This document shows, one piece after another, positions 24,553 through 44,862 of a stretch of 64,000 nt of DNA (the stretch's first letter is position 1; every line of letters starts with the position of its first letter). This stretch comes from Candidatus Endonucleibacter sp. (ex Gigantidas childressi) (lineage in GTDB: Bacteria > Pseudomonadota > Gammaproteobacteria > Pseudomonadales > Endozoicomonadaceae): the NCBI GenBank assembly GCA_030674875.1, contig JASXSU010000001.1, positions 630,001 to 694,000 on the forward strand, given 5' to 3'. The notes beneath the pieces are model-generated. The model did not search any database. It saw nothing but the letters and a program-made list of their open reading frames with translations, and had not been told where the DNA came from. The position numbers and the translations under genes were made by a program.

Positions 24553-25728
24553 CTATGTACGGGACAAAAAACCTGAAACCCATGAGTTTCAAGGCATAAT
24601 TAGCATGACGTGACTCTTAGGCAAGATAACCTGCACGGTCTTTTACTTCAGAATAGATTATGGTTGTTGGACATGAAAGACGTCAGTTCATTGGCCTAGA
24701 AGCTAAAAGCTCGCCTGCCCCTACATCAAGTTCGAATCACCTTCATTGCACAGCTTGCAATGGCCTTACTGCGTAGATATTCCACCAACTTGTACCTTGT
24801 GTGTAGCCAAGAGTTTCAGACAAAGGCAGACAGCGAGTCCTGTTATCGCCGTATAAGGCGTTTTTTCTCTGATTATGACTACAGCTAGGTGAGCTGATTC
24901 TGAGTTGCCTGGACATGAATCGCTTTGCCCTATGCATGGATAGAACCAACTGCGCGCATGGTTCCAAAAACATCAACTATCTGGTGGTACCAATTGCTTG
25001 GCAAGAAACCTCAATCCCCATTGTTTGAGCGTGTCTTGACAAAAAAAGAGGAAACTCCAATACCGATGAACGCATAGCGGTAATGGAGCGTGTACTAAAT
25101 CTCATTCCCATAAAGAAAATTGATAACCTTCTGGCAGATCGTGAGTTTATAGGCCACGAATGGTTGACTGGTTACGTCAAAACAAACTGTCATGCATAAT
25201 TAGAGTTAAAAGTAATAATGTGGTGGAGCATTAAAGCAAAAAGACTGCCATTGGCAAGCTATGCAGAGGCGTTAGTATCAATCAAACAGTAACGTGCATA
25301 GAAAAAAGAAAGTATCTGGAGTACCGCTCTATATTGCAGCCCGTCGAACTCTGAAAGGATTGTTGATCGTCGTAGCTACTAAAAAGCCAGACAGCATAGT
25401 AGATGACTGTAGTAAGCGCTGGAGTATTGAAACCATGTTTGGCAATCTAAAAAGTAGGGGCTTTGATTTGGAGTCCACACATATGACGAACCTTGACCGG
25501 ATGGATAAACTGATGGAACTACTGACGATTTCTGTTGTGTGGTACCTACTAATAAGGCACTGGTGTTGTGAGAATGCAAATCAATTGCCGCTGAACAAGC
25601 ATTACCGTCCAGCCAAGAGCCTGTTTCGATTAGGCTTGGATAAGGTTAGACGGGTACTCAAAAACAGCTGTGCAAAAAACAATCAAACCACTTTTTTAGA
25701 TTTGCTAAATATTTTGTCCCGTACATAG
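24553..25728 (+). mobile_element. IS4-family element, copy A, decayed
   Basis: Bounded by inverted ends CTATGTACGGGACAAAA (24553) and TTTTGTCCCGTACATAG (25728). The C-terminal transposase piece at 25294-25728 is open and carries the IS4 signature YREK region, KRWSIETMFGNLKSRG, then DLESTHMTNLDRMDKL. Upstream, coding pieces such as IPVNKIxNLLADREF-like sequence are broken by stops. It is the empty-site partner of copy B: the sequence GCCGTATAAGGCG near 24848 lacks the MITE found in copy B. Confidence 0.85.
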
Positions 25729-25811
25729 GTTGTTTATGTTGTTTATCAGTTGGGTATCTGTTAGCGTGTTACAGCAATAAAAGCAGCATATAATCAGGAG
25801 TAGATAGCACT

Positions 25812-28800
25812 ATGTTTATCTCATTTAAATCTTATTCAATTCCATTCTGTTGCAAATATGTAAAAAGTGTTTTTTTACTGTTGATATTGGCCTGTGGTTG
25901 CAGTGTAAGTTCAGCGCAAAATTATACGTCACCGGCAGAGCAGTTGCACCAACAAGGTGCCGAGCAGCCACTCAAAAAAAGTTGGACCAATAGTCAGGCT
26001 GATGGAGAGGAAAACTTAGCTGGAAGGTGTTTTAGTAGTAGCAACTTATTAGGAGGCGCTGAATATAGCAAAAGCCATGATAATAGCATTAGTTGCTTGC
26101 AACATGTGCTAGATGACAACGATCTTTCTGTTACTCTAGAAGCATTTAAGGGAAAAAACGTGTTTGAAGTGCTTGCTATGGTATATGTAAGTATTTTGCT
26201 AGAAGTTGGTGAGCTTGAACAAGACATAATTAACGCTGGGTTAGAATCACCTAGCTGGATAATAGGTTTTAGCGGTATCACCCAAGAAATAAAGAAGAGA
26301 GCTTGTTGCCGCCTGCCAAAAAGTACAAAAACAACGTTTACACAGCTCACTAAAGAAGAGCAAATGTTCGTTGCAGAGGTATTGAATTCTAGAGCAAAGC
26401 AATGCTTTTATAAGCTTCACACCTTGTGGCAAGATAAGGTTAAGACGAGTAACGCTAGCCCACTAATTTGCGCCAAATTAGATGAACAAGTAAGTTCGCT
26501 GATGTTAAGAGCACAAAATGATACGCACTTCTTAAATGAGGTTGTCTTGAAGCAAACGCGTAACTTAGTGGATGTATTATCAACCCATTATGTAGTAGCT
26601 ACAACAAGTAATACGCCATCAGAGATACAATATCCAGTATTAGAAGCATTGGTGAATTGGGGTGCGCGTAATTCCGATAGCTTAATAAGCAAATTACTAG
26701 ATGATAGCAAACGTTGGGTTACGCAAGATTATCATTTGACTGCAGCAGAAAACAAAACAAATGGCATAAGCGCAGAGGAAAAAGTATTTTTCTCCTATTT
26801 GCATTACAACTCAAAAGATGTAACCGAGGTATGGCATGGTGCAAATGAGTCTTTACGTGATTGTGAAGCCAGAGAGATTGCTAATACTTTATTAGCTAGC
26901 GATGTTATAAAAAATTTAAGTGATCAGTTTAAAACAGTACAACAATTAAATGTCATTTATCAGTCTGGATTTGTGGCATTAGATGCAATGCATAGCAACC
27001 TAGAACAACAAGAAAGCCTTAACCCAGAGGACCAAGCTAAAACAAAGAAAGATAAACAAAACGGATCATTTGGCCAAGAAGACTGGGATGAATACCTAGA
27101 GGAAGGTCTAAAGAAAAACATGAAAGACAGTCTTTTGGGTAAGGTTGCATCTGGTATTAACTATGTATTTAATGTTGTAAAAAATGGCTTTACGGCACCA
27201 CCAACCAAGCAAGAGCAAAGCAAAAAAATAATGACTGCCTGGGTTAATATGGTACAAAAAAATGCCTTGCATTTAACAGATAGCTCAGATAATAAAGGCA
27301 TACAATTGGTTATGGCAGAGTTGATAAAAATAGATAGCCTGCATAAAGAAGGAGATATAACCATAAAAGATGCTTTAATTACACTGGTTGCACAGGATTG
27401 TACTAGTTCAGATAAAGAACAAGCGTTTACCCTGTTAACAGGGTTACAGCGTAAAGCAGATATACGACAAAAAACATATTGCTACCAACCACTTGTTACT
27501 GCTGTTTCAGATAAAAATGCTAATGATTGTGAGTTACAATATGAGCAAGCAGACCAGCCAATAGATATTCCAGCAAGTGGTAATGCTTTTGCAAAACACA
27601 ATAATGCTGAAGAAAAGCATAGAGATTGGTTGTCTATGCCAACAAACGACTATACGTTACAAAAAAGTAAATCACAAAATGATGTTGAGGTTAATGAAGC
27701 GGATGGGAGTTATGAAAGTGATGGTACTAATACAACTGAACCATCACCTTTGCACGTAGATTGGTGTTTTATTAATATAGATTATGAAGAAAAAAATGAA
27801 GAGCAAGCAAGAGGCCAGCGCAAGACTGTGTGGATAGGATCTAGCTATAATTCATCGTTTTACAGTAGGCTTCTTATGGGCGCAGTTGTAGGCTTGTGTG
27901 TTTTAGCTGTTGTGGACTCTGCTACAGCAGCAAGCTCTCCTCAAGCTGAGGCATTTTTTCAGAACCATACCCAAGCACACGATAGCTCAAATTTAAATAG
28001 TAACCATTCTCGGCATATTAGGGATGTGAGTGCAGCCTCTGCTTCTAATGTTATTGGCATCAGTAATGTCACAGGGCTGGAACTTAATTGGCAATCATAC
28101 AGATTACCCCAGTAACGGCAGCTATAAACTAACTGCAAGCTTTAACGTAAAAAACTTCACCAGACCAATACCGGTGTTTACAGGTGATTTCAATGGAAAT
28201 AATGAAACCCTTGACGAGCTGCCATGCTGTTTGATAGACAAACTTGCAGGTAAGGGAATAGTTCAAAACATAAACTTCAATAATGTTGACACTAGGAATG
28301 CAGAATGTGATCCAGCAGTTGCCAATACTATGCATGATGAGTCCATAGTTAGATTTATCAAAATTGAGAATAGTCAGTTTGAAGGGGTTGGTATAGATAG
28401 TAAGATAGGTATGGTCTCTAATTTTATGGTGTCGGCATCTAGCCTTGATAATGTAATGATCGTAAATAGCACTCTTAATGGCACTGGGGTTAAATATGCC
28501 GGTGGGGTAGTAGGAGAAGTAGATAATACTGGGAGTGAATTTTTTAAAGTAATGATAGTAAATGTCAATATTACTGGCTCAGGCAAGTATGCACGTGTCG
28601 GTGGGGTAGTAGGATATAAGGATGCACGTGTCGGTGGGGTAGTAGGATATATGGCAGGTGTGAAAGTTAAAGAAGTTTATATCGGCAACACTATTGTAAA
28701 GGGCGGTGGTAAAGATAGTATTGTTGGAGGTGTTGTTGGATTCTCCGATAAGAATTTCATACAGAATGTTACCGTTATAGATTCGAATATTTCTGGAAAA

Positions 28801-29874
28801 TATGCCGGAGGAATAGTAGGTTACTCAAGGTCTGATGAAGTTAGTACCTGTCATGTTATTAGGACGGAAGTAATGGTCGTTTAGTAGGTGGGGTGATCGG
28901 ATCTGGTGACAGCAGTAAAATGGAAAATGCTACAGTTGCTAATTCTACTATTATTGCGCATACTGAAAGTCCTTCTGTTGGGGGCGGAATAGGGTTTGCT
29001 AATGCTATTACTGCTGTAGACCTTACTGTTATTGATACTGTTATTGATGTTATTATCAAACCCTCAGAATATACATCAGAAGTTGGCGGTGGTTTTGGAC
29101 AGTCAAGTGCAGGCGTACAATTTTCCAATACAATGATCATCAAAACTAACTTGAGTATAGATGGAGGTGGTGGTTCGGTGTCTGCTGGATGGGTGAGGGC
29201 GAGATGATAGGAATTAATATAGATGGACAGCTTGCAGTTAGTCAAAGCTTTATCAATATTAAGGGGGTAAAGAATATAAAAATAGGTGGTGCTGTTGGGC
29301 TTATGGATCCGCTTCTATTTCAAGCTTTACGGTAAGTAGGAGCAGGGTACTATTTGAAGGGAAGGGATCAAATATACAAATAGGATTTTGTATGGGATAC
29401 AACAACGGAAATAGTAAATGTGACTTTGATGAAACTAAAAAGATATTCGATAACTCATCTTACAATGATGCGAACGGAGCCTCACACCATCAGTATAATT
29501 ATAATATGAACTTAGCTAATCAATGCAAGGGGAGTAAGTTGCCTTTTATAGGGGAAGATTGTGAAATTAAACCAGAAGAATATTGTCGTTATAAAGAGCC
29601 TCTTATTATGGTGTGGAATGCACCTTGCTTACGCAAGCGCAAACACCAGCACTAACAGGTGCCTACAGTCGCACTTGGAGCATCTGGTGCTGCTTTTATT
29701 GCCGTTGCTGCTGTTGGTGGTGGTTTTTATTGGTATAAAAGGCATAATAATGGAGGTTGTTGTTCAGGTCATAGGGAGCTGTATACAGAAGATGGTGACC
29801 ATCCAAGCGGAAAAGATGAACAAAAAGCTGAAGAAAGTATGATTATGATTGAGTCTTCAGGTGCAGTTGAATAG
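25812..29874 (+). pseudogene. GLUG-repeat giant surface protein, copy 1, multiply frameshifted
   Basis: The first 767 codons are open and nearly identical to copy 2 at 30287, including the signal peptide and the internal hydrophobic segment GAVVGLCVLAVVDSATA. Comparison with copy 2 then shows single-base changes of frame near 28079 (extra G), 28873 (missing A), 29200, 29304 and 29630, each followed by coding-like sequence in a new frame. The remaining pieces still encode GGVVG repeats and the C-terminal anchor GGGFYWYKRHNN. Translation would stop at 28115, giving a protein with no repeats and no anchor. All the damage lies in the 3' half. Either the 5' half was homogenised recently by gene conversion, or the truncated product is still under selection. 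Confidence 0.85.
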
Positions 29875-29895
29875 CTGTAATTGAATCTGTACGCT

Positions 29896-29931
29896 GCCTA
29901 TTCTTAATTTTTCTGATTGGTAAGAATAGGC
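29896..29931 (+). terminator. Hairpin after copy 1
   Basis: A perfect 11-bp stem, GCCTATTCTTA with TAAGAATAGGC, around a 14-base loop, 21 bases after the stop codon. There is no T-run behind it, so it could be a terminator of weak type or an mRNA 3' end stabiliser. Confidence 0.5.
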
Positions 29932-30286
29932 ATTTGAAGTACGATGGGTTATGGGTACTATTAAGTTGTTTTAAAATTATCTGAGAAGTAAATATAAGTT
30001 TTACCGTTTTTGGTAAATACCTACAATATTAAATTGTAAAATAATGAGTGACAATTACACTATATTTGAAACTATAAAGTTCTGAATGTTTGCGGGCTGC
30101 ATCTTTATCAGTTACTAGCATGCTTGTATTTATTTCACTATAAGTTATTGTATTATATAGCAATTTAGCGCACGGGCTCTCTTGATGCTTTAGACGGCTA
30201 TGTTGTTTATCTGTTGTTTATCTCTTGGTTACCTGTTAACATGTTGCAGCAGTAAAAACAGCATATAATCAGGAGTACATAGCACT

Positions 30287-33200
30287 ATGTTTATCTCATT
30301 TAAATCTTATTCAATTCCATTCTGTTGCAAACATGTAAAAAGTGTTTTTTTACTGTTGATATTGGCCTGTGGTTGCAGTGTAAGTTCAGCGCAAAATTAT
30401 ACGTCACCGGCAGAGCAGTTGCACCAACAAGGTGCCGAGCAGCCACTCAAAAAAAGTTGGACCAATAGTCAGGCTGATGGAGAGGAAAACTTAGCTGGAA
30501 GGTGTTTTAGTAGTAGCAACTTATTAGGAGGCGCTGAATATAGCAAAAGCCATGATAATAGCATTAGTTGCTTGCAACATGTGCTAGATGACAACGATCT
30601 TTCTGTTACTCTAGAAGCATTTAAGGGAAAAAACGTGTTTGAAGTGCTTGCTATGGTATATGTAAGTATTTTGCTAGAAGTTGGTGAGCTTGAACAAGAC
30701 ATAATTAACGCTGGGTTAGAATCACCTAGCTGGATAATAGGTTTTAGCGGTATCACCCAAGAAATAAAGAAGAGAGCTTGTTTCCGCCTGCCAAAAAGTA
30801 CAAAAACAACGTTTACACAGCTCACTAAAGAAGAGCAAATGTTCGTTGCAGAGGTATTGAATTCTAGAGCAAAGCAATGCTTTTATAAGCTTCACACCTT
30901 GTGGCAAGATAAGGTTAAGACGAGTAACGCTAGCCCACTAATTTGCGCCAAATTAGATGAACAAGTAAGTTCGCTGATGTTAAGAGCACAAAATGATACG
31001 CACTTCTTAAATGAGGTTGTCTTGAAGCAAACGCGTAACTTAGTGGATGTATTATCAACCCATTATGTAGTAGCTACAACAAGTAATACGCCATCAGAGA
31101 TACAATATCCAGTATTAGAAGCATTGGTGAATTGGGGTGCGCGTAATTCCGATAGCTTAATAAGCAAATTACTAGATGATAGCAAACGTTGGGTTACGCA
31201 AGATTATCATTTGACTGCAGAAGAAAACAAAACAAATGGCATAAGCGCAGAGGAAAAAGTATTTTTCTCCTATTTGCATTACAACTCAAAAGATGTAACC
31301 GAGGTATGGCATGGTGCAAATGAGTCTTTACGTGATTGTGAAGCCAGAGAGATTGCTAATACTTTATTAGCTAGCGATGTTATAAAAAATTTAAGTGATC
31401 AGTTTAAAACAGTACAACAATTAAATGTCATTTATCAGTCTGGATTTGTGGCATTAGATGCAATGCATAGCAACCTAGAACAACAAGAAAGCCTTAACCC
31501 AGAGGACCAAGCTAAAACAAAGAAAGATAAACAAAACGGATCATTTGGCCAAGAAGACTGGGATGAATACCTAGAGGAAGGTCTAAAGAAAAACATGAAA
31601 GACAGTCTTTTAGGTAAGGTTGCATCTGGTATTAACTATGTATTTAATGTTGTAAAAAATGGCTTTACGGCACCACCAACCAAGCAAGAGCAAAGCAAAA
31701 AAATAATGACTGCCTGGGTTAATATGGTACAAAAAAATGCCTTGCATTTAACAGATAGCTCAGATAATAAAGGCATACAATTGGTTATGGCAGAGTTGAT
31801 AAAAATAGATAGCCTGCATAAAGAAGGAGATATAACCATAAAAGATGCTTTAATTACACTGGTTGCACAGGATTGTACTAGTTCAGATAAAGAACAAGCG
31901 TTTACCCTGTTAACAGGGTTACAGCGTAAAGCAGATATACGACAAAAAACATATTGCTACCAACCACTTGTTACTGCTGTTTCAGATAAAAATGCTAATG
32001 ATTGTGAGTTACAATATGAGCAAGCAGACCAGCCAATAGATATTCCAGCAAGTGGTAATGATTTTGAAAAACACAATAGTGCTGAAGAAAAGCATAGAGA
32101 TTGGTTGTCTATGCCAACAAACGACTATATGTTACAAAAAAGTAAATCACAAAATGATGCTGAGGTTAATGAAGCTGATGGGAGTTATGAAAGTGATGGT
32201 ACTAATACAACCAAATCATCACCTTTGCACGTAGATTGGTGTTTTATTAATCTAGATTATGAAGAAAAAAATGAAGAGCAAGCAAGAGGCCAGTGCAAGA
32301 CTGTGTGGATAGGATCTGGCTATAATTCATCGTTTTACAGCAGGCTTCTTATGGGCGCAGTTGTAGGCTTGTGTGTTTTAGCTGTTGTGGACTCTGCTAC
32401 AGCAGCAAGCTCTCCTCAAGCTGAGACATTTTTTCAGAACCATACTCAAACTGAGTCATTTCTGCATAATACTACCCAAATCGATAGCTCAACTATTAGA
32501 GCCTCTGCTTCTAATGTTATTGGCATTAGTAATGTAGCAGAGCTGAACTTAATTGGCAATCATACAGATTACCCTAGTAACGGCAGCTATAAACTAACTG
32601 CAAGCTTTAACGTAAAAAACTTCACCAAACCAATACCGGAGTTTACAGGTGATTTCAATGGAAATAATGAAACCCTTGACGAGCTGCCATGCTGTTTGAT
32701 AGACAAACTTTCAGGTAAGGGAATAGTTCAAAACATAAACCTCAATAATGTTGACACTAGGAATGCAGAATGTGACCCAGCAGTTGCCAATACTATTACT
32801 GATGAGTCCATAGTTAGATTTATCAAAATTGAGAATAGTCAGTTTAAAGGGGCTGGTAGCTATTTTGAAGGGGTTGGTAGCTATTTTGAAGAGGATGATA
32901 GAGTGTTTAAAGGGAATGCTATAGGTATGGTCTCTAATGTTATGCGGGGGGAATCTAGTTTTGATAATGTAATGATAGCATGTAGCACTCTTAGTGGCAC
33001 TGGGGTTAAATATGCCGGTGGGGTAGTAGGAGCAGCATTTAATAGTGGGAATGAAGTTTTTAAGGTAATAATAGTAAATGTCAATATTACTGGCTCAGGC
33101 CGGGCTCTACGTGTCGGTGGGGTAGCAGGAGAGATGCGAAGCGTGGGAATTAAAGAAGTTTATATCGGCAAGACTATTGTAAAGGGCGCGGGTCAAGCTC

Positions 33201-34396
33201 GTGTTGGAGGTGTTGCTGGATACTCCGCTGATAGTGCCATACAGAATGTTACCGTTATAGATTCGAATATTTTTGGAGGCATTGCCGGAGGAATAGTAGG
33301 TTTCTCAAGGTCTGATAAAGTTAGTACCTGTCATGTTATTAGGGCGAAAGTAAATGGTCGTTTTGTAGGTGGGGTGATCGGATCTGGTGAAAGCAGTGAA
33401 ATGAAAAATGCTACAGTTGCTAATTCTACTATTATTGCGCATACTGAAAGTCCTTCTGCTGGGGGCGGAATAGGGTATGCTAATGCTATTACTGCTGTAG
33501 ACCTTACTGTTATTGATACTGTTATTGATGTTGTTATCAAACACTCAGAATATCAATCAGAAGTTGGCGGTGGTTTTGGAAAGTCATATCGAAGAGTACA
33601 ATTTTCCAATACAATGATCATCAAAACTAACCTGAGTATAGTTGGAGATGATGGTGTTTTGTCTGCTGGATGGGGGGTGGGCCAGATGACGGAAAGTGGT
33701 GCATATGAACAGCTTGCAGTTAGTCAAAGCTTTATCAATATTAAGAAGGCAAATGATGCAAATATAGGTGGTGCTTTTGGGTTTATTGATTCCGCTTCTA
33801 TTTCAAGCTTTACGGTAAGCAGGAGCAAGATACTATTTGAAGGGGATGGATCAAATGTACAAATAGGATTTTGTATTGGAGAGAATAAAGATGGAATAAG
33901 TAATTGTACTTTTGATGAAACTAAAAAGATATTCGATAACTCATCTTACAATGATGCGAACGGAGTCTCACACCATCAGTATAATTATAATATGAACTTA
34001 GCTAATCAATGCAGGAGGAGTAAGTTGCCTTTTATAGGGGAAGATTGTGAAATTAAACCAGAAGAATATAGGCGTTATAAAGAGCCTAGTATTATGGTAT
34101 GGAATGCACCTTGCTTAACGCAAGCGCAAACACCAGTCTCTGCAGCCACAGTGCCTACAGAAGCACCTACAGAAGCACCTACAGAAGCATTAATAATTGG
34201 AGTATCTAGCGTTGCTTTTATTGCCGTTGCTGCTGTTGGTGGTGGTTTTTATTGGTATAAAAGGCATAATAATGGAGGTTGTTGTTCAGGTCATAGGGAG
34301 CTGTCTACAAAAGATGGTGACCATTCAAGCGGAAAAGATGAACAAAAAGCTGAAGAAAGTATGATTATGATTGAGTCTTCAGGTGCAGTTGAATAG
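30287..34396 (+). CDS. Giant secreted surface protein with GLUG-like repeats, copy 2 (intact)
   Basis: A 1369-residue protein, unrecognised as a whole. A signal peptide (VKSVFLLLILACGCSVSSA) starts it. Residues about 40-680 form a largely helical, charged ectodomain with no known motif. A second hydrophobic segment at about 686-708 (LLMGAVVGLCVLAVVDSATAA) resembles an internal signal sequence with an A-T-A cleavage-like end. Residues about 745-1160 contain repeated units of about 35-45 residues, each with GGVVG, GGVAG or GGIVG, a pattern like the GLUG repeats of bacterial adhesins and IgA proteases. A PTEA stalk repeated three times leads to a single span at about 1301-1324 (VAFIAVAAVGGGFYW), basic YKRHN and a 45-residue acidic tail. 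A surface adhesin or host-facing role is inference. Start chosen at the ATG at 30287, eleven bases after AGGAG. Confidence 0.85.
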   Translation: MFISFKSYSIPFCCKHVKSVFLLLILACGCSVSSAQNYTSPAEQLHQQGAEQPLKKSWTNSQADGEENLAGRCFSSSNLLGGAEYSKSHDNSISCLQHVLDDNDLSVTLEAFKGKNVFEVLAMVYVSILLEVGELEQDIINAGLESPSWIIGFSGITQEIKKRACFRLPKSTKTTFTQLTKEEQMFVAEVLNSRAKQCFYKLHTLWQDKVKTSNASPLICAKLDEQVSSLMLRAQNDTHFLNEVVLKQTRNLVDVLSTHYVVATTSNTPSEIQYPVLEALVNWGARNSDSLISKLLDDSKRWVTQDYHLTAEENKTNGISAEEKVFFSYLHYNSKDVTEVWHGANESLRDCEAREIANTLLASDVIKNLSDQFKTVQQLNVIYQSGFVALDAMHSNLEQQESLNPEDQAKTKKDKQNGSFGQEDWDEYLEEGLKKNMKDSLLGKVASGINYVFNVVKNGFTAPPTKQEQSKKIMTAWVNMVQKNALHLTDSSDNKGIQLVMAELIKIDSLHKEGDITIKDALITLVAQDCTSSDKEQAFTLLTGLQRKADIRQKTYCYQPLVTAVSDKNANDCELQYEQADQPIDIPASGNDFEKHNSAEEKHRDWLSMPTNDYMLQKSKSQNDAEVNEADGSYESDGTNTTKSSPLHVDWCFINLDYEEKNEEQARGQCKTVWIGSGYNSSFYSRLLMGAVVGLCVLAVVDSATAASSPQAETFFQNHTQTESFLHNTTQIDSSTIRASASNVIGISNVAELNLIGNHTDYPSNGSYKLTASFNVKNFTKPIPEFTGDFNGNNETLDELPCCLIDKLSGKGIVQNINLNNVDTRNAECDPAVANTITDESIVRFIKIENSQFKGAGSYFEGVGSYFEEDDRVFKGNAIGMVSNVMRGESSFDNVMIACSTLSGTGVKYAGGVVGAAFNSGNEVFKVIIVNVNITGSGRALRVGGVAGEMRSVGIKEVYIGKTIVKGAGQARVGGVAGYSADSAIQNVTVIDSNIFGGIAGGIVGFSRSDKVSTCHVIRAKVNGRFVGGVIGSGESSEMKNATVANSTIIAHTESPSAGGGIGYANAITAVDLTVIDTVIDVVIKHSEYQSEVGGGFGKSYRRVQFSNTMIIKTNLSIVGDDGVLSAGWGVGQMTESGAYEQLAVSQSFINIKKANDANIGGAFGFIDSASISSFTVSRSKILFEGDGSNVQIGFCIGENKDGISNCTFDETKKIFDNSSYNDANGVSHHQYNYNMNLANQCRRSKLPFIGEDCEIKPEEYRRYKEPSIMVWNAPCLTQAQTPVSAATVPTEAPTEAPTEALIIGVSSVAFIAVAAVGGGFYWYKRHNNGGCCSGHRELSTKDGDHSSGKDEQKAEESMIMIESSGAVE
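34154..34189 (+). repeat. 12-bp tandem repeat encoding PTEA units
   Basis: Three perfect units of CCTACAGAAGCA. Copy 1 lacks the array. The resulting PTEAPTEAPTEA stretch precedes the membrane anchor. Confidence 0.92.
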
Positions 34397-34417
34397 CTGT
34401 AATTGAATCTGTACGCT

Positions 34418-34453
34418 GCCTATTCTTAATTTTGCTGATTGGTAAGAATAGGC
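34418..34453 (+). terminator. Hairpin after copy 2
   Basis: Same 11-bp stem as after copy 1, with one change in the loop. Its conservation while the surrounding 3' coding region diverged suggests it matters. Confidence 0.5.
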
Positions 34454-34761
34454 ATTTGAAGCACGATAGGTTATAGGTACTATTAAGTTGTTTTAAAATT
34501 ATCTGAGAAGTAAATATAAGTTTTACCGTTTTTGGTAAATACCTACAATTCCTAGTAAATACCTACAATATTAAATTGTAAAATAATGAGTGACAATTAC
34601 ACTATATTTGAAGCTATAAAGTTCTGAATGTTTACGGGCTGCATCTTTATCAGTTACTAGCATGTTTGTATTTATTTCACTATAAGTTATTGTATTATAT
34701 AGTAATTTAGCGCATAGATTCTCTTGATGTTTTAGTCGGCTATGTTGTTTATATTGGTTAT

Positions 34762-36009
34762 CTATGTACGGGACAAAAAACCTGAAGGCCTTGATTTTCA
34801 AGGCATAATTTAGCAATGGTGACTCTCAGGCAAGGTAACCTGCACGGTCTTTTACCCCAGAATAGGTTATGGTTGTTGAACATGAAAGACGTCAGTTCGA
34901 AGCTAAAAGCTCGTCTGCCTATATCAAGCTCGGATCACCTTCATTGCACAGCTTGTAACGGCCTTACTGCGTAGCCGTTCCACTAACTTGCACCGTGTAG
35001 CCGAAGAGTTTCAGACGAAGGTAGACTACGAGTCCAGTTATCGCCGCATATACCCGTCGCCTTTCAAGTTGCTACGTTGTTGGCTTCGCTTACATACTGC
35101 CTAGTAGCAATTTGAAATGCTTTGAGTATAAAGAGATTTTTCGCTGACTCTGACTACAGTTTTGAGCAACAAGGTGAGCTGATTCTGAGCAGCCTATGCA
35201 TGGATCGCTTTACCCTGCGCATGGATAGAACCAACTAGACGCATGGTTCCAAAAACCTCAACTATCTGGTGGTATCAATTGCTTGGCAAGGAACCTCAAT
35301 TCCCATTGTTTGGGAGTGTCTTGACAAAAAAGGAGGAAACTCCAATACCGATGAAAGCATAGCGGTAATGGATCGTGTACTAAATCTCATTCCCTTAAAG
35401 AGAATTGATAACCTTCTGGCAAATCGTGAGTTTATAGGCCACGTATGGTTAGACTGGTTACGTCAAAACAAACTGTCATGCAGAATTCTGGTTAAAAGCG
35501 ACAATGTGGTGGAACATCGAAGCAAAAAGATTGCCATTGGCAAGCTATGCAGAGGCGTTAGTATCAATCAAACAGTAATGTCGCATAACAAAAAGAAAGT
35601 ATCTGGAGTACCGCTCTATATTGCAGCCCGTCGAACTCTGAAAGGATTGTTTCTCGTCGTAGCTACTAAGAAGCCAGACAACATAATAGATGACTATAGC
35701 AAGCGCAGGAGTATTGATACCATGTTTGGCAATCTAAAAAGTCGGGGCTTTGATTTGGAGTCCACACATATGACGAACCTTGATCGGATGGATTAACTGA
35801 GGGACTACTGACGATTGCTGTTGTGTGGTGCCTACTACCTACTAGTAGGCACTGGTGTATGGGAATGCAAGTCAATTACCGCTAAACAAGCATTACCGTC
35901 CAGCCACGAGTCTGTTTCGATTAGGCTTAGACGGGTACTGAAAAACAGCTGTGCAAAAAATGATCAACCCACTTTTTTAGATCTGCTAAATGTTTTGTCC
36001 CGTACATAG
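34762..36009 (+). mobile_element. IS4-family element, copy B, decayed
   Basis: Ends CTATGTACGGGACAAAA (34762) and CGTACATAG (36009). The longest open piece, 35269-35796, encodes QGTSIPIVWECLDKKG, LLANREFIGHVWLDWL and the YREK-type region KRRSIDTMFGNLKSRG; a TAA after LDRMD and later shifts break the C-terminus. It contains a MITE at 35051. It lies in the same orientation as copy A on the other side of the tandem duplication. Confidence 0.85.
35051..35128 (+). repeat. 78-bp deletion derivative of the family 1 MITE
   Basis: It has both family 1 ends (TACCCGTCGCCTTTCAAG and TTTGAGTA) but lacks 46 bases of the centre. TA flanks it at 35049-35050 and 35129-35130. IS4 copy A has only one TA at the same position and no insert. 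Confidence 0.88.
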
Positions 36010-36020
36010 ATTACTTACCC

Positions 36021-36160
36021 TTATGATATCCGTTACCATTGAAAGTATAAGCAGCCTATAAATTAGCAAATCTTATTACCCTAAGAGTAGTAGTGGATGC
36101 TATTAATAAGAGCAGTCAACTATCTCACACCTTTATGCAAACTAGTACACCCACCATCAT
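36021..36160. repeat. 140-bp direct repeat, right member (family 2 type)
   Basis: Starts TTATGATATCCGTTACC and ends ACCCACCATCAT. It closely matches 38838-38977 in the same orientation and at the same length. It overlaps the stop codon of the second pilW-like gene. Confidence 0.85.
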
Positions 36161-37482
36161 GGGGTCGTCCCGCCACTCTCATCATCATCCTCTTCACTTT
36201 CTACGTCTTCTGGGCATTTTATATCCACATCTGCCGGCAAAGGTTCTGATGGTTCCGGACCTCCATTACAGATGAATTCTTCCACTTGTTTAAATAAACT
36301 CTTTGTTTCATCAGATGGAGGTGCAGGGCAATTCACAGTATCTGTATTGTTTGGGTCTGTACAATCCAATACCGGAGGTTTGAGTACCTCAGGAGGCGTA
36401 TCAGCGATTTCTGGGACTTCGTCCTGTCCCGACTCAGAGTACACTCGCTCTCTCCAGCTATTGTCTCGCTTCGTTGCAAAAATACTTTGGGTCATGGTAA
36501 ACACATAGCGTGGCTCTTTATCATTAATACTAAGAGTGGTACTGCCTAACACATTATAGCTGCGACTCATAGTTACACCTTCGCCAAATTGATTCCCCCC
36601 CCCTACCAAAAGCCCTATCTTCACCCCTCTCACAAAACCCCAATTATCTATATCGCTGGCCGTACGGTAACTAGATACGGCTCGCCCTCCACCATCAGCA
36701 TAGCCATATAACACTTGGAGCTGCTCAACACCTTCAACCATCAAGTGACCACCACCGGATCGAGGAGTACCGTTAGTTTCAAAGCTCTTGCAAAACAAGC
36801 CCTTCTCCCCTTCTGCAGTCTTATCAATAAAGTAACGATTGACTATACTTCCTGATGTGTACACACTAGTACAATCTGCGTCGTACCCAGGGTTAAGTAC
36901 AATAGCTATAGCATCACTCAGGTTGCCACCACCTTCACTGGTACAAGACGCTCCGTCACATAGTCCTGCATAAAAAAGAGTATCTCCAACCTTTTGATAG
37001 GTTATCCAGCCACCACTCCCACGCTTCGTTGTTGCGTTCAGATTAATTCTACAATCCCCATCTCCAGTATTTCTAGACAGAAATCCACTAGCCCATGAAA
37101 AGCCTTTGCATGAAGTATTTGCATCACAGGCAACTTGGCAAGCATTGAGTAGCGTATTCACGTTACGAGTCGTTCCTCCTGAAAATGCTTCATTCGGATA
37201 GATATTGTAACCTCCAATACCAACCCTTACGCTACCGCTACCAGCTTCACGAACATCTCGTCCTAACATGTCCAAAGCATGCTGCGCAGTGGTCTGTGCC
37301 TTTGATCTGGTATCATGATAACTCGAGCTTTGTACGTTGGCGAAGAATACTTGGAACATCCCCTGTATCATCACAACAGAAAGCAATGCGGTGATCATCA
37401 CTTCAATTAATGATAACCCAGCCTGCTTTATCTTATTGTCCAAGTTATGGTTATCTAACTGCGTGTATAAGGCTTTTGTCAT
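36157..37482 (-). CDS. PilW-like minor pilin with an inserted PAN/Apple-like domain
   Basis: The start is the ATG at 37482, five bases after GGAGG, giving 441 residues; the open frame reaches 37593 only through overlap with the previous gene. The prepilin leader ends KIKQAG and the mature protein begins LSLIEVMITALLSVVMIQ, so prepilin peptidase processing is expected. After the pilin helix, residues about 90-165 insert a Cys-rich module with NACQVACDANTSCKGFSW and GDCRINL, spaced like a PAN/Apple domain, a fold used for protein or carbohydrate binding. The later part (VEGVEQLQVLYGYADGGG) is ordinary PilW. A long acidic Pro-rich tail ends the protein. It is the last gene of the operon and a second PilW besides the one at 44859. 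A role at the pilus tip is inference. Confidence 0.82.
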   Translation of the reverse strand: MTKALYTQLDNHNLDNKIKQAGLSLIEVMITALLSVVMIQGMFQVFFANVQSSSYHDTRSKAQTTAQHALDMLGRDVREAGSGSVRVGIGGYNIYPNEAFSGGTTRNVNTLLNACQVACDANTSCKGFSWASGFLSRNTGDGDCRINLNATTKRGSGGWITYQKVGDTLFYAGLCDGASCTSEGGGNLSDAIAIVLNPGYDADCTSVYTSGSIVNRYFIDKTAEGEKGLFCKSFETNGTPRSGGGHLMVEGVEQLQVLYGYADGGGRAVSSYRTASDIDNWGFVRGVKIGLLVGGGNQFGEGVTMSRSYNVLGSTTLSINDKEPRYVFTMTQSIFATKRDNSWRERVYSESGQDEVPEIADTPPEVLKPPVLDCTDPNNTDTVNCPAPPSDETKSLFKQVEEFICNGGPEPSEPLPADVDIKCPEDVESEEDDDESGGTTP

Positions 37483-38677
37483 TAAGTCCTCCATATGCAT
37501 TAATAGTTCTGTTATTTTTAGACTTATCATTTTTAGCGTCATTAAATGAGCTACCCTCGAAATCAACATGAACTGCCAATAGCCCATCAACAACCCGTCC
37601 GTGCATCAAACCTCTAACTTGAGAACTCAATATGGCACTGCTATAAACTAGAACATCATCAATTTCACCTTTAAAATATTTATTTATTTTACCAATAAAA
37701 AAGTATCCTTGTACATGGAGTGGGGGTGCATCTACTGCCCACTTACGAACCAACGCCCCATTTTTGTATAAAGAATAATTATTTCCGCTTCTTATCCAAG
37801 CAATATGAACCCATACCTCAGCAGCAAAAATATTATTCATAACTTGCTTATGACTAGTATAAACTACTGTATTCCAACGTCTCACGTCATAGTCCCAGCA
37901 GGTCCAGGCTATCCTCGTCACACAGTATCTCTCTGAGTGAGGCGTAACAACTCTGCTGTATGCGTCAACCTCTATACCTCCACCGGCTTTAATTGATAGT
38001 CCTGTATTTCTACCACCATCACCTGGCGCACCAAAAAAATCAGCAGCTGCAAGAGACTTAGGCTTAATCCACATAGCCATGGTAAAGTCTCCATTTGCAC
38101 TTGGAGTACCTGCGCCTGAAACTTTTAAATAGTCATTAGCACCATTAAAAGATAAAGCTCGATTAATTAGCAGCAATGCATCTGCGTGAGCTGATAATTT
38201 ACCAGTACTTTTACCTTTTGAATCCCAGTTAATACTAACCCTTCCTCGTAGCGTGCCCCGCTCAGCGCAATTGGTCAAAGCACTACCAGAGTTAACGTCA
38301 AAGCACTCGAACTTCATACTAAGATTATCAATACCATCAAGATCATGACAATATGACTGCTGCACATCATATTTCACTACCTCAGACTGCATACACTTAG
38401 CGCCAACGCAGCTCTGAAGTGACTTACAGTAATCCTTACGATTAGTGACACCATTAATTTCTGTCTTATACAATTGAGGAACAAGGTTGAGCTTAATACG
38501 TTCAAGCATCTCTTCTGAAAGTCGCATCATCGCACTGCGATTAGAGCCGTCTGAAACAAGGCTCAAGCTTTTCATATGTCCATCACTAATCCATAACATT
38601 GCAGTTGAAAGAAGCACAGCGCTAATTAGCACCTCTATAAGGGTCACACCCGATTGCTTTACCTTATGTTTTTTCAT
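37451..38677 (-). CDS. PilV-like minor pilin fused to a LamG/concanavalin A-like domain
   Basis: A 408-residue protein. The prepilin leader KVKQSG is followed by VTLIEVLISAVLLSTAMLWI, and the first 170 residues resemble PilV. Residues about 173-352 form a LamG-like jelly-roll module: RALSFNGANDYLKV, DFTMAMWIKPKSL, VWVHIAWIRSGNNYSLYKNG and YFKGEIDDVLVYSSAIL. The remaining 50 residues (GLLAVHVDFEGSSFND and on) look like the beginning of a second such module that is cut short. Such domains bind glycans or proteins. The gene overlaps the next pilW-like gene by 32 bases, which suggests translational coupling. A lectin-like tip adhesin is a reasonable inference. Confidence 0.83.
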   Translation of the reverse strand: MKKHKVKQSGVTLIEVLISAVLLSTAMLWISDGHMKSLSLVSDGSNRSAMMRLSEEMLERIKLNLVPQLYKTEINGVTNRKDYCKSLQSCVGAKCMQSEVVKYDVQQSYCHDLDGIDNLSMKFECFDVNSGSALTNCAERGTLRGRVSINWDSKGKSTGKLSAHADALLLINRALSFNGANDYLKVSGAGTPSANGDFTMAMWIKPKSLAAADFFGAPGDGGRNTGLSIKAGGGIEVDAYSRVVTPHSERYCVTRIAWTCWDYDVRRWNTVVYTSHKQVMNNIFAAEVWVHIAWIRSGNNYSLYKNGALVRKWAVDAPPLHVQGYFFIGKINKYFKGEIDDVLVYSSAILSSQVRGLMHGRVVDGLLAVHVDFEGSSFNDAKNDKSKNNRTINAYGGLNDKSLIHAVR

Positions 38678-38837
38678 AAAACCATGCCTTCTCTATTATT
38701 GATTTATAGTAACCTTTTTAAATATTCCCTCTGCATAAAAAACATTATAGAATCTGAAAGATCACACCTTCTTTTTCTTTAAACTGGATTAAATATTTTT
38801 ATCTATATTTAATCCTAACAACCTTACTTACCTACAT

Positions 38838-38977
38838 TTATGATATCCATTACCATTAAAAGTATAAACATCTTATAAATGAGCAAATCTTATGACCATA
38901 AGAGTAGTAGTGGATGCTATTAGTAAGAGCAGCCAACTATCTCTCACCTTTATGAAAACTAGTGCACCCACCATCAT
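38838..38977. repeat. 140-bp direct repeat, left member (family 2 type)
   Basis: Same length and orientation as 36021-36160, with scattered substitutions. It lies in the 324-base gap between the fimT-like gene and the LamG pilin, so the two repeats bracket the two domain-bearing pilin genes. Confidence 0.85.
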
Positions 38978-39001
38978 ATGATCTTCTCGTAATTATTATC
39001 A

Positions 39002-39535
39002 TCATCCACAGTCTCCATAATCAGATGATAACGCAATTCTTCCTCTAGTAGTCTTATTACGAATCAAGATCTCTCTGCGAGGCCCGCTTGTAACACCATC
39101 AAGACATAAAGAAAATTTGCTGTCAGTCTTGAAATTAACCTGCCCCCTTGAATTGAACAAGAAACCATTACCAGCACCACTCCACGTCACATTAAAAGAA
39201 GAAGACATATTATTATAAACACGAAGAAGCTTGTCACCACTATCAAGTTTTTCATTACCATTTTCATCAACAAAAACTATCCATCCACCAGACCAATTAT
39301 TACCAGCATTACACTTTACTCCTGATGAACTTCGACAAACAGTAATATTTTTCTTTCGCATAATGGATTCACTTTTAGCTAAAACAATAGAATTATAAAG
39401 TCTCTTCATGGCATAATCTATTCTATATTCACGAATCATTGATCCCATTGATACAAAACCACTCGATAGTATACCAATAATAGCTACAACCACAAGCACT
39501 TCCAATAAAGTAAATCCATATTGTTTTTTTTGCAT
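39002..39535 (-). CDS. FimT/GspH-type minor pilin (second copy)
   Basis: The ATG at 39535 is preferred to the GTG at 39544, because AAAAGG sits eight bases before it; this gives 177 residues. The leader KKQYG precedes FTLLEVLVVVAIIGILS, a standard type IV pilin start. The C-terminal domain has GWIVFVDENGNEKLDSGDKLLRV and FNSRGQV, the GspH/FimT hallmarks, and ends in two Cys-containing loops. It starts 26 bases after the pilY1 stop, so it belongs to the same operon. It probably joins the minor-pilin complex that primes assembly. The first copy is at 46425. Confidence 0.88.
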   Translation of the reverse strand: MQKKQYGFTLLEVLVVVAIIGILSSGFVSMGSMIREYRIDYAMKRLYNSIVLAKSESIMRKKNITVCRSSSGVKCNAGNNWSGGWIVFVDENGNEKLDSGDKLLRVYNNMSSSFNVTWSGAGNGFLFNSRGQVNFKTDSKFSLCLDGVTSGPRREILIRNKTTRGRIALSSDYGDCG

Positions 39536-39561
39536 TTCTTTCACCTTTTAGTATCTATGTC

Positions 39562-42500
39562 TTACTGCACTTCGAATATCTGTCTCCAGGATTGGCGCCC
39601 TGATGATGAAAAGTCATATATAATATCTTCGGTATAAATATTTCCACCAGACCCCTTAATCATTATCTTACTCTCTCCTTTTTGTTCGTAAAAAATGGAT
39701 GGGGATGAGAGATAACCCAACCCAAAATCAACACTTGACAGCGACAGATCATCATTGCTATTAGTGGTATCAAAAACACCTAATATATTCTTAGGAGACG
39801 ATGTTCCTGTTAAGTAATGCAATCCATACAAAAAACCGTGGCCATCAAGCTGACAACTATTCTCTGAAGGTTGATTTTCAGAAAAAAGAACCATACTAAA
39901 CAAATGATTAGCTTTATTCATACTTTTCCCAGACGGTACCATACCATCTCCCCTTAAATCTATTTTCCAGCCAGATTGTTTACGCATCTCACTCTTTAAA
40001 GACTCGAAACTATTCACTGTATTGCCACCAATAACCACAGATATATACTTCTCTTTGTTTTTCAACAAAACCTGACCTGATGTCTTCACAACAATATTCG
40101 TAGTATCAACAAGACTGCCAAGGCTAACATTATCGAATATATGCACCCCATTGACATCTGTCGGCTCTTTTACTCCATAAAAACTGTTAACAGACTTATC
40201 TTTATTATCCTTATTAACTAATAGTCGGCCTGTACCAATATAAATCCAATAATCATTTCCATCACTAAGTGTTAATGGTGCTGCAGTTATGGGTTGCTCT
40301 GTTCGTAGCAATGCACTCACCGACGAGCTCTCAATGCTATTACCTACTTTAAAGCGAAGTAATTCACCAGACAAAATAGTGCTAGAAGTATCAATTGCAC
40401 CGAAATACACTGCATCATCCTGATAGTCCTGATCCCAGTCGGTAGCTGTCATGTCTCCACCGTAGCTATTTGAACGAGACGTTGTTAACGGATCAAGCCC
40501 ACTAACAAGTGTTTTGTTTTTCAAATCATAAGCAAACACATTAAGATTTTGGTCACTTTCACCATGCTCTAACGCATTCCTAAGACCCATTTCACCTGAC
40601 CCAGCAGGACCAGAGGCAAACATCAAATACCATTGGTTTCTTGCCGGTCTCCCCCAATCGCCACCTTTTCCAGCCTTCCTATATTTTACCAATACAGGCT
40701 TGGAAGTACTAAACCCCAATTTAGGGTTGGTTATTTCATCTAGTAATATCGGTGGTTTTTCTGGGTTAGTAACGTCAAGTACAACATAACCTGAGCGCAT
40801 AATACGTTTATGACCTTCAGCAGTTACATCAATAGCTCCGCCACCTTGACGCATACCTATAACAAGGATCGTCCCCCACCCTCCGGGATGATCTGCATCA
40901 GCGGTGAAAATATTAACGTCAAAGGCTTGGGATTCACCATCCATGTAATAAACATGAGGATAATCAGGTTCTACTAACCAACGAAGATGGGGCAAAAGAT
41001 TCATGGGAGCATATGCCCACAATTCATAACCTAGCGGATGAGCTGTTTCTCCTGAGCTCCCAGCTACGTTATAAGCATAGGCATCTTCACTCATAAAACC
41101 TCCATTAAAAGCATGAATTAATCCATCGTTAGCACCAACATAAACAACATGCCTGCGATTTTTATAATGCTCTTTAAATGCCCCATAACTACTGTCACCA
41201 TAACGAACGTCATATCCATCTGCAGGCTCGATAACGGCTACCGGTGTCGAGTTTATAATATCTCCTAGTCGCCACGTTTCATCAATGCCATCTAGATCAT
41301 AGTCAATGGTTCTAGAGCGCCATTCATCGATGTCCTCTCCTCTTATATAATTAACAAGATCTGCAGCCTTACTGGCTGCTATGCCCAAATAACCTTCCTT
41401 ATTAATAAACGTTGCAGGAATAAATGGTCGCACTTCATCACCATTAACAACTTGATCATTATTGCTATCAAGCCAGGTTAGTATATGTCGCCCCCCAGAT
41501 GCCACTGAATTATAAGTTCTCTGATCAACTGGGCTTGTAATACTTGCCAATGCATCCCTAGCATCCCACAACGCATTAAGGTCTTTTAACGGTAACCCCT
41601 CTCCATCTATAACTTTATTATCGTCAACTATGGCGTAACGCTGCACTAACGTCTGCTCTGTATCAGGATCAAAAATTAACTCAATAACTCTATCAATACT
41701 GTAATCATCCAACATACCATTGCCATTAGAGTCTTCCCGCACCCACCCCTTATTATCAATAAATAATGCATGCAGCATCCCCCCCCAAGTAACCACCTTT
41801 TTATTCAATTCCAGTTTTGGCTGAAAGATAGCCTGATACAAAGTACCAGCACCTTTACTGCTATGAGACGCTAGAGCACCATTAGTTCCAGAAGCCATCC
41901 TAGCTGAAATATTTTGAAAAACCTGTCCAAGCTGGCGCTCCAGCAAGGAAGGGTTTCGAATCAAGAAATAATTATCAGGCAAGCCATCTGCACCAGTAGC
42001 ACCAGTAATATTATTGTGACTGTCCCATTCACGAGCATCACCTACATCTGGAGAACCATCGCCATTGAAATCGTTTCCTGGCGAGCTATCCTTATCTAGG
42101 TCAAAGAAGCCACCATATTTTGCAGCAAACCATAATGGCTTCGGTAACTGAGTGGCCGTATTTCCGACAGCATTAAAGATAGTTGCAACCGTTGCCCCCT
42201 GCCCCTGACTAGCATTGTTTCCTGCATCCTGAGCCATAGGAAGAACGATACCATCCTTATCTGTTCCGGTGACGGTGTAAGAATACCAGGTTTCAGATCC
42301 TGCATTTTTTGATTCCTGTCTGACAGACAGCTGAACCTGAAACTCACCAACTGCTGGCGAACAAGCGCTAGCTATACAAAACTCAACACTGGAACTTGCA
42401 TCATAGTCGTAGTCATTACCCCATAAAGAATCTTCCCATGTGAACAAAAATCTGCCACTTTTTTTATCGGGGGCAAGGAACTCCACAACAACATCTGTTA

Positions 42501-44277: not shown

Positions 44278-44316
44278 AAATACCACTCCATAAACTTAAT
44301 TCCCTAGGATACCATC

Positions 44317-44862
44317 TCAATTATTTTTCTTATAAGTGCTCTGCAACATCGCTCGTGCACTTTTTGATGCCCCACTGGCTTTCACCGTTATTCTGAAAAA
44401 TTGAGACCAATCATTAATATTGGTTATATCTGGTTTTAGCCCGTCATGATCCTTAGGCAAATAACAACGAAACTCAATAATATACCAACCATTAAAAAGT
44501 ATTCCACCAAAATTCATCTCAACTTTTTTCACTCTAGAGCTATTACTCCACAAATCTTTTTCCCGCCATGGTGAAACCGAATTAGCACTACAGCTTGCAG
44601 CATCATTGACATGCGAACCACTAAAGCATAGCCCCTGATTACACTCAGATGTAAATTCCGTAACATCTAAGTTAGTTTCAGAAATATATTTTTCAGCTTC
44701 AAGTAACGTTGCCTCAGCAGCATAAAAAGCAAGCTGCTGATTATTATAATTACCAGCAATCTTTTCTTCAATACTTGAAGAGTTTATTGCAGTAACACCA
44801 ACTATCGTCAAAATCAGTAAAAACACTAAGCTCATAAATAACACGCTTCCATGCTGTTTCAT
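44317..44862 (-). CDS. pilX: Minor pilin PilX
   Basis: A 181-residue protein beginning MKQHGSVLFMSLVFLLILTIVG, the PilX N-terminal pattern with a short leader before the hydrophobic helix. SSSIEEKIAGNYNNQQLAFYAAEATLLEAE continues the conserved N-terminal domain. Four Cys occur in the C-terminal half. The start overlaps the pilW stop by four bases (ATGA), so translation is coupled. PilX belongs to the minor-pilin/PilY1 priming complex. Confidence 0.9.
   Translation of the reverse strand: MKQHGSVLFMSLVFLLILTIVGVTAINSSSIEEKIAGNYNNQQLAFYAAEATLLEAEKYISETNLDVTEFTSECNQGLCFSGSHVNDAASCSANSVSPWREKDLWSNSSRVKKVEMNFGGILFNGWYIIEFRCYLPKDHDGLKPDITNINDWSQFFRITVKASGASKSARAMLQSTYKKNN

What the first reader, a model, noticed from the sequence alone, without database searches (positions are those of the whole stretch)
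25812..34396. Tandem pair of giant surface proteins: identical front halves, diverged and broken back halves
Aligning the two copies by eye, the first about 590 codons differ at only three residues and hardly at any silent site. From about codon 598 onward, differences become frequent and copy 1 suffers at least five changes of frame. The upstream flanks have also diverged. A simple recent duplication would give even divergence, so the sharp boundary points to gene conversion confined to the 5' half, or to strong diversification of the repeat half. Copy 1 could act as a silent donor of repeat-domain variants for copy 2.
Basis: partly seen in the sequence, partly recalled or inferred. Interest (0 to 1): 0.75.

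Follow-up and report, generated by a model that had tools for sequence, protein, structure and literature searches.

The report
Recombining family of variable surface proteins
The two giant genes belong to a family of about forty related copies, many in tandem arrays, whose front halves are kept alike while their repeat-bearing back halves are reshuffled and pushed to differ, as in known systems by which microbes vary their surface.

Summary
In detail: copies 1 and 2 differ at 4 sites before nt 1775 (3 residues, 1 silent) and at 208 from there on. But the pair is 2 of at least 38 units in this genome, in arrays and as singles, and the 34 alignable units together show the same contrast: pi 0.003-0.016 in nt 301-1800, 0.10-0.15 in nt 2551-3600. 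Conversion homogenises the front: silent divergence is threefold lower there, and front blocks are inherited independently of backs. The back is mosaic and under diversifying selection (dN/dS 2.44, CI 1.84-3.45, aa 861-1100), with change concentrated in loops beside conserved GGxxG motifs. Copy 1 as silent donor for copy 2 is not supported. The architecture resembles Mycoplasma gallisepticum vlhA; the front domain matched none of 291 other genomes of the order. The host is inferred to be 'Ca. Endonucleobacter'-like. Expression, switching and structure were not tested.

The parts
25812..29874 (+). Copy 1: frame-broken member of the family; first open frame 767 codons, then at least five changes of frame
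30287..34396 (+). Copy 2: open member, 1369 aa; hydrophobic N-terminus, long conserved domain, TM-like segment aa 687-705, GLUG-like repeats, PTEA stalk, TM-like segment aa 1301-1319, polar tail (surface location inferred)
30649..32080 (+). Homogenised 5' block of copy 2 (nt 363-1794): mean divergence over pairs of copies about 1%
32867..33586 (+). Hypervariable repeat region of copy 2 (aa 861-1100): conserved GGxxG motifs flanked by variable loops, dN/dS 2.44
34154..34189 (+). 12-bp coding repeat (PTEA stalk), 3 units here, about 69 in the unit at C1:1515k
29875..30286 (+). Inter-unit spacer (412 bp), similar to the spacers in the other arrays read
30201..30237 (+). 11-bp tandem repeat (3.4 units) upstream of copy 2; roughly 1-4 units upstream of other copies; copy 1 has a 9-bp repeat of 2 units at 25729-25746
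30264..30269 (+). TATAAT, beginning 23 nt before the ATG; present in 28 of 29 copies examined
25789..25794 (+). The same TATAAT before copy 1
24553..25731 (+). Degenerate insertion sequence (weak DDE_Tnp_1 match) at the left border of the array
34762..36012 (+). Second, interrupted copy of the same insertion sequence at the right border (34762-35050 and 35126-36012), in direct orientation

Best explanation
The two genes are members of a large paralogous family of predicted membrane-anchored, repeat-bearing surface proteins that diversifies by homologous recombination among about forty copies. Shown from sequence: the copies lie in head-to-tail arrays and dispersed singles; their 5' block is homogenised, at least partly by gene conversion; their 3' repeat half is a mosaic of short tracts shared between loci, also between contigs; and selection favours amino-acid change in loops beside conserved GGxxG motifs. 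Inferred: the nearly identical 5' block and the spacer act as homology arms that keep the copies recombining, so the conserved half is repeatedly overwritten while variants of the exposed loops are kept by selection. Frame-broken copies such as copy 1 are by-products that still share tracts with open copies. Inferred and weaker: each copy has its own promoter with an 11-bp repeat of variable number, so different copies may be on or off at different times. The likely purpose is variation of the cell surface against host recognition or for host-cell binding.
For: Copy number and arrays. Contrast over 34 units. Silent divergence differs between the halves, and dN/dS is 2.44 (CI 1.84-3.45) in aa 861-1100 against 0.44 (0.28-0.73) in aa 121-600: 19 of the 20 long open copies. 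Near-identical stretch in a distant, otherwise diverged single copy. A start-less 5' block joined to five 3' halves that differ by 11%. Mosaicism: four-gamete incompatibility rises with distance, 0 of 2000 permutations in nt 1795-2500 and in nt 2500-3750; 32 of 465 pairs share significant tracts, median 187 nt, 22 of the 32 on different contigs (65% of all pairs are). The 9 frame-broken copies have no indel in nt 363-1794, and none of the 29 rows testable there has a stop. Variable loops: mean entropy 1.08 bits at the seven residues before GGxxG against 0.07 at the glycines, p 1.8e-8, 8 motifs, 19 copies. Upstream repeats and TATAAT. RecA is present and RuvB lies in the window.
Against: Within the 5' block itself the recombination signal is weak (82 of 2000 permutations reach it, 44 sites). 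Frame-broken copies have pN/pS 0.28 in that block, so purifying selection on a still-translated N-terminal part could also keep it intact. The tract in the single copy has one clear edge only. Neighbours are hardly more alike than distant copies. dN/dS does not exceed 1 with confidence before aa 861 or in aa 1101-1280, and silent divergence is uneven behind the front (0.058-0.148 in aa 701-1280). A sigma-70 scan of two spacer stretches shows no clear excess of promoter-like sites. No second strain, no reads and no expression data were available; contigs C1, C2, C3 and C6 end in or near family copies, so array assembly is uncertain. No structure was obtained: structure prediction was busy at eight attempts.
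Confidence: 0.7

Rival explanations
1. No special exchange: the family expanded recently, the front half is held by purifying selection, and the back half simply evolves fast under relaxed or positive selection.
For: dN/dS 0.44 in the front and 2.44 in the back; pN/pS 0.28 in the front block of 8 frame-broken copies; weak recombination signal inside the front block.
Against: Silent divergence also differs about threefold with separate intervals. Start-less units are 99.65% alike in front and 11% apart behind. A near-identical stretch sits in an otherwise diverged distant single copy. Tracts are shared between copies across contigs.
Confidence: 0.15
2. Silent-cassette system: one or few expression sites are fed by archive copies, copy 1 being a donor for copy 2, as in Anaplasma msp2 or Neisseria pilE/pilS.
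For: Broken and start-less copies share tracts with the others: 17 of 32 significant pairs are broken-intact.
Against: 20 of 34 aligned copies have a start and at least 1228 open codons, and 29 of 29 examined have a similar upstream block, 28 with TATAAT. The pair copy 1-copy 2 shows no significant tract.
Confidence: 0.1
3. Assembly artefact: a mixture of strains or collapsed repeats in a metagenome assembly makes chimeric copies that look like conversion.
For: C1, C2, C3 and C6 end in or near family copies. The genome is in 12 contigs and the assembly is inferred to be metagenomic.
Against: Completeness 98.75%, contamination 0.4%. Copies differ by 0.7-20% in the 3' half at loci with different surroundings. 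The single copy at C3:1257k has an intact 1571-codon frame and diverged ends, yet carries the near-identical stretch.
Confidence: 0.07
4. Diversity-generating retroelement mutating the repeat half.
For: A hypervariable 3' region with a conserved remainder.
Against: No reverse transcriptase (PF00078) match in the genome (the same search finds one in 3 of 14 control genomes). Variable sites are not biased to adenine: 0.48 of A, 0.65 of C, 0.47 of G and 0.34 of T majority sites vary in nt 2550-3300.
Confidence: 0.01

Closest known systems
vlhA (pMGA) lipoprotein haemagglutinin family of Mycoplasma gallisepticum
   Same: Numerous variable surface-protein genes in one genome, whose promoters carry a short repeat of variable number about 40 nt upstream of the transcription start (abstract of PMC6258824); here an 11-bp repeat of variable number lies upstream of TATAAT. 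That vlhA genes stand in arrays is recalled.
   Different: No family model for vlhA was matched; 11-bp instead of GAA repeats; no evidence that repeat number sets expression; long proteins with GLUG-like repeats in what is inferred to be a Gram-negative bacterium.
vlhA of Mycoplasma synoviae; mgpC of Mycoplasma genitalium
   Same: Variants arise by recombination: M. synoviae vlhA recruits pseudogene sequences (start of abstract, PMC2825196); that mgpC draws on partial copies is recalled, the listing shows only the start of the abstract of PMC2169797.
   Different: M. synoviae is described as expressing from one unique promoter; here 20 of 34 aligned copies are long open genes and 29 of 29 examined have a similar upstream block.
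Anaplasma msp2 and the multigene outer-membrane family of Ehrlichia
   Same: Hypervariable region between conserved ends and many paralogues; the review calls the Ehrlichia genes tandemly arranged full copies (passages of PMC4534519).
   Different: Different protein family; no single expression cassette seen; the variable part here is the repeat half before the last TM-like segment.
GLUG-like proteins of relatives in the same bacterial family
   Same: 10 of 56 other genomes match P0002, with all listed rows in aa 652-1180 at 22-35% identity.
   Different: The N-terminal domain was found in none of 291 other genomes of the order.

Membership tests
vlhA-like arrays (way of working) | Tens of paralogous surface-protein genes in tandem arrays at several loci (feature recalled) | tested here: met
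   At least 38 units: arrays of 11 (C1:141-191k), 8 plus fragments (C3:1315-1356k) and 7 plus a fragment (C6), besides the window pair and others; surface location is inferred
vlhA-like arrays (way of working) | Each gene with its own promoter bearing a repeat of variable number | tested here: inconclusive
   Similar upstream blocks in 29 of 29 copies, TATAAT in 28; 11-bp units roughly 1-4; no transcription data, and sigma-70 scans found no clear excess over shuffles
vlhA-like arrays (way of working) | Phase-variable expression tied to repeat number | not testable with these tools
   No RNA or protein data
vlhA family (membership) | Homology to vlhA proteins | tested here: inconclusive
   No match above a curated cut-off in Pfam or NCBIfam for the family proteins scanned, except the PT disordered repeat in the copy at C1:1515k; no direct comparison with a vlhA protein was made
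Silent-cassette/expression-site systems (msp2, pilE, vlsE type) | One complete gene, the other copies lacking start or promoter | tested here: not met
   20 of 34 aligned copies have a start and at least 1228 open codons
Silent-cassette/expression-site systems (msp2, pilE, vlsE type) | Gene conversion tracts in the variable region | tested here: met
   32 of 465 pairs beyond the global 5% threshold
GLUG motif family (PF07581) | Score above Pfam's gathering cut-off | tested here: not met
   12.2 bits against 20.5 for a copy 1 piece; not listed for copy 2
Diversity-generating retroelement | Reverse transcriptase in the genome | tested here: not met
   0 matches to PF00078
'Candidatus Endonucleobacter' (host identity) | BIR/IAP genes in an Endozoicomonadaceae-like genome | tested here: inconclusive
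   28 BIR matches in about 12 open frames; the two congeners have 11 and 9. PMC11521996 also reports IAPs in some Endozoicomonas (passage). Genome names are withheld

The most novel reading that the evidence does not exclude
A recombining, promoter-repeat-controlled surface variation system of about forty genes in an intranuclear bacterial parasite of an invertebrate: a homogenised front half serves as a recombination anchor and the loops of a repeat solenoid form a variable face selected against, or for binding to, the molecules of a host that has no antibodies.
Probability: 0.3. Interest if true: 0.82.

Novelty: new variant of a known kind. Interest (0 to 1): 0.62.

Why it matters
Antigen-variation families of this size are known mainly from pathogens of vertebrates, where antibodies are the usual explanation (recalled). 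If the host is, as inferred, a bivalve without antibodies, strong diversifying selection (dN/dS 2.4) on the repeat loops points to another selective force, such as innate lectins, phages or host-cell receptors, and makes it testable. The family is also a clear natural example of one gene whose two halves evolve in opposite ways: one made uniform by conversion, the other kept diverse.

Tried and rejected
Diversity-generating retroelement: rejected (no reverse transcriptase; no adenine bias). Long-read indel errors as cause of the broken frame of copy 1: unlikely, 1 of 9 non-triplet indels is beside a homopolymer of 5 or more. Tandem neighbours exchanging preferentially: not seen; mean 5' divergence 0.0094 adjacent (23 pairs), 0.0085 same array (76), 0.0108 elsewhere (366), and 3' divergence 0.1135, 0.1124, 0.1207. 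Insertion sequence as a specific array mobiliser: the element has at least about 40 copies over the genome (60 matching pieces; 40 of 176 candidates were scored), so bracketing of the array may be background; but at four array or single-gene starts (C1:8.8k, C1:141k, C1:655.8k, C2:4.3k) it lies at the same place, which suggests block duplication. Solved structures: only weak matches to BAG-family chaperone regulator chains (E 0.025, 0.14, 0.086), not used. Relatives in viral contigs: none. The genome-collection scan gave one weak match, not followed; records of the own genome may be left out there. NCBIfam gave only matches far below their cut-off. dN/dS for aa 1301-1369 is not relied on, because some tails in the set are out of frame or of another type.

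Sets differ between calls. Searches used 31 of 34 aligned units (C2_739, C6_0003 and C1_0002 dropped as truncated). One search used 20 and one search used 19 long open copies (C6_0003 dropped), among them C1_151, whose tail is altered and which one search counted as frame-broken; the 20 'intact' units include C6_0010 in its place. One search left C1_151 out of the frame-broken set (8 instead of 9). The stop check could not be applied to the five start-less rows. One search gave 33 significant pairs with 200 permutations; one search repeated it with 500 and gave 32, the number used. Confidence in the best explanation was lowered from 0.72 to 0.70, and the no-exchange rival raised from 0.13 to 0.15, after rechecking, where one edge of the tract is gradual.
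Full report
WHAT IS THERE. Copy 2 (30287-34396) is one open frame of 1369 codons; copy 1 (25812-29874) begins with 767 open codons and then changes frame at least five times. The protein of copy 2 starts with a hydrophobic segment, has TM-like segments at aa 687-705 and 1301-1319 (and a weaker hydrophobic window at aa 117-135), GGxxG repeats at aa 911-1165, a PTEA stalk and a polar tail. Pfam gives no match above cut-off for either window copy; a copy 1 piece scores 12.2 bits for Glug against a cut-off of 20.5. The name 'surface protein' is therefore an inference from anatomy.

THE CHECK. Copies 1 and 2 differ at 212 of 4002 compared positions. A single change point at nt 1775 (codon 592) raises the log-likelihood by 109.5, against at most 9.8 in 200 permutations. 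Before it there are 4 differences, three of them changing a residue.

NOT A PAIR BUT A FAMILY. A DNA search of the window's genome with copy 2 shows relatives on contigs C1, C2, C3 and C6. That search scored 40 of 89 candidates and cut its list, so counts are lower bounds. Reading those stretches gives 38 units: 34 long enough to align together, plus two 1.4-kb fragments, one unit cut at a contig end and one diverged single copy (C3:1257k). A further 347-bp fragment, an intact relative at 72% DNA identity (C1:472k) and two relics without a long open frame (C2:240k, C3:634k) are outside that count. Arrays are head to tail, with a spacer of about 412 bp. Twenty of the 34 aligned units have a start and at least 1228 open codons; 1 of the 20 (C2_0004) runs to a contig end and 1 (C6_0003) stops before the stalk. 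Thirteen of the 20 end in the same residues as copy 2 or nearly so. So copy 2 is one of many open genes and copy 1 one of several broken ones.

THE SAME CONTRAST OVER THE FAMILY. Mean pairwise diversity over the 34 units is 0.003-0.016 per 150-bp window in nt 301-1800 and 0.10-0.15 in nt 2551-3600; the first 300 bp are more variable (0.04-0.05). Copy 1 versus copy 2 lies within the family range: 0.42% in nt 363-1794 (8% of 465 pairs are closer) and 12.2% in nt 2500-3750 (60% are closer). The boundary is sharp for this pair but stepwise for the family.

WHY THE FRONT IS UNIFORM. Silent divergence, which selection on the protein should hardly touch, is 0.0235 (bootstrap interval 0.0149-0.0337) in aa 121-600 and 0.0699 (0.0499-0.0909) in aa 861-1100. 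A start-less type of unit shares a near-identical junction of about 570 bp (7 units); the five such units in the alignment are 99.65% alike in nt 363-1794, yet differ by 11.2% in nt 2501-3750, about as much as other pairs: front and back are inherited independently. The single-copy gene at C3:1257k, with an intact frame of 1571 codons, differs from copy 2 at 4 of 240 third positions and 1 first or second position in aa 281-520, while in aa 1-120 third positions differ at 39 of 117 codons. This is best read as a conversion tract, but with one clear edge: on the 3' side 9 of 200 third positions differ in aa 521-720 and 11 of 36 in aa 721-760. The 9 frame-broken copies have no indel in nt 363-1794 and are more alike there (0.0053) than the intact ones (0.0132). 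Against this, the permutation test inside the front block is weak (82 of 2000), and pN/pS of 0.28 in 8 frame-broken copies leaves room for selection on a truncated product. In the five start-less units pN/pS is 2.9, on only 11 variable codons.

WHY THE BACK IS DIVERSE. dN/dS is 2.44 (1.84-3.45) in aa 861-1100 and not clearly different from 1 in aa 761-860 (1.25, 0.68-2.62) or aa 1101-1280 (1.37, 0.94-2.00); in aa 701-760 it is 0.49 (0.25-0.94) with the highest silent divergence before the tail (0.148) (19 copies). Around 8 GGxxG motifs the first, second and last glycines hardly vary (mean 0.07 bits) and the seven residues before them vary strongly (1.08 bits, p 1.8e-8); residues just after vary too. 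The pattern is that of a conserved repeat scaffold with variable loops; that it is a solenoid is inference, as no structure could be computed. In the same half the nearest relative of a copy changes along the gene, incompatibility between sites rises with distance (0 of 2000 permutations), and 32 of 465 pairs share significantly long identical tracts, median 187 nt. Of the 32, 22 are between contigs, as expected from the 65% of all pairs that are, so distance does not seem to limit exchange. Copy 1 shares tracts with C1_146, C1_155 and C3_1351, copy 2 with C3_1326; copy 1 and copy 2 do not share a significant one (7.7 against 13.5).

FLANKS AND CONTROL REGION. The left border of the window array is a degenerate insertion sequence, 24553-25731, with a weak DDE_Tnp_1 match; a second, interrupted copy follows the array at 34762-36012 in the same orientation. 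The element has at least about 40 copies in the genome. This explains the 'diverged upstream flanks': the first unit of the array has the border, the next has the spacer. Immediately before the ATG the 29 copies examined share a similar block, with TATAAT 23 nt upstream in 28 of 29 and repeats of mostly 11 bp, roughly 1-4 units, further upstream (the unit counts are rough pattern counts). Sigma-70 scans of 29800-30320 and 34380-35000 found no clear excess over shuffles and no terminator, so promoter function is inferred.

WHERE IT LIVES. The genome carries 28 BIR-domain matches in about 12 open frames, and its two congeners 11 and 9. PMC11521996 (outline and abstract, sections 6 and 32, found passages) describes such inhibitors of apoptosis in 'Ca. 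Endonucleobacter', a parasite of deep-sea mussel nuclei, and also counts some in Endozoicomonas. I infer a 'Ca. Endonucleobacter'-like host; the name is given by no call. Neither congener matched by protein or profile search, and the N-terminal domain was found in none of 291 other genomes of the order. The repeat half has distant matches in 10 of 56 other genomes.

WHAT IT WORKS LIKE. The nearest parallel is the vlhA family of Mycoplasma gallisepticum, whose promoters carry a GAA repeat of variable number (abstract and section list of PMC6258824; passages of PMC11261720). It is a parallel of architecture; descent was not tested directly. Single-expression-site systems (passages of PMC4534519) fit less well because so many copies are open. 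Searches for this family in print: 'GLUG' with 'Endozoicomonas', 0 papers; 'GLUG motif', 2 papers, neither on this group by title; 'Endonucleobacter' with 'surface protein', 0 papers; a five-term search whose 15 listed papers (of 1,103) contain no mention of Endonucleobacter. The library lacks preprints and most subscription journals.

VERDICT. I rate it a new variant of a known kind: a new, apparently lineage-specific family using the known principle of recombinational surface variation.

Noticed in passing
window 36157-46474 (minus strand): Type IV pilus minor-pilin cluster (PilW twice, PilX, GspH, PilY1 domain in a 1574-aa protein) in which one pilin-like protein carries a LamG/concanavalin-like domain and one PilW protein a PAN domain just below its cut-off: pilins with lectin-like domains.
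   Followed up: no
window 50066-51133 (minus strand): NAGidase (PF07555, beta-N-acetylglucosaminidase) domain in a genome inferred to be of an intranuclear parasite.
   Followed up: no
G000, e.g. C1:1333k-1335k, C2:117k-119k: 28 BIR-domain matches in about 12 open frames, up to 1423 codons long; the two congeners have 11 and 9.
   Followed up: partly
L015:6990-7821: 12-bp coding repeat with about 69 units (PTEA stalk) in the family copy at C1:1515k; the same kind of repeat has 3 units in copy 2, so stalk length varies greatly.
   Followed up: partly
L011 (G000 C1:166567-166729) and L025 (G000 C6:21755-21838): An 81-bp tandem repeat, about 4 and 3 copies, inside the family copies C1_164 and C6_0024 on different contigs.
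   Followed up: no
window 24553-25731 and at least about 40 places in G000: A mostly degenerate DDE insertion sequence, abundant over the genome, a sign of past transposon expansion.
   Followed up: partly
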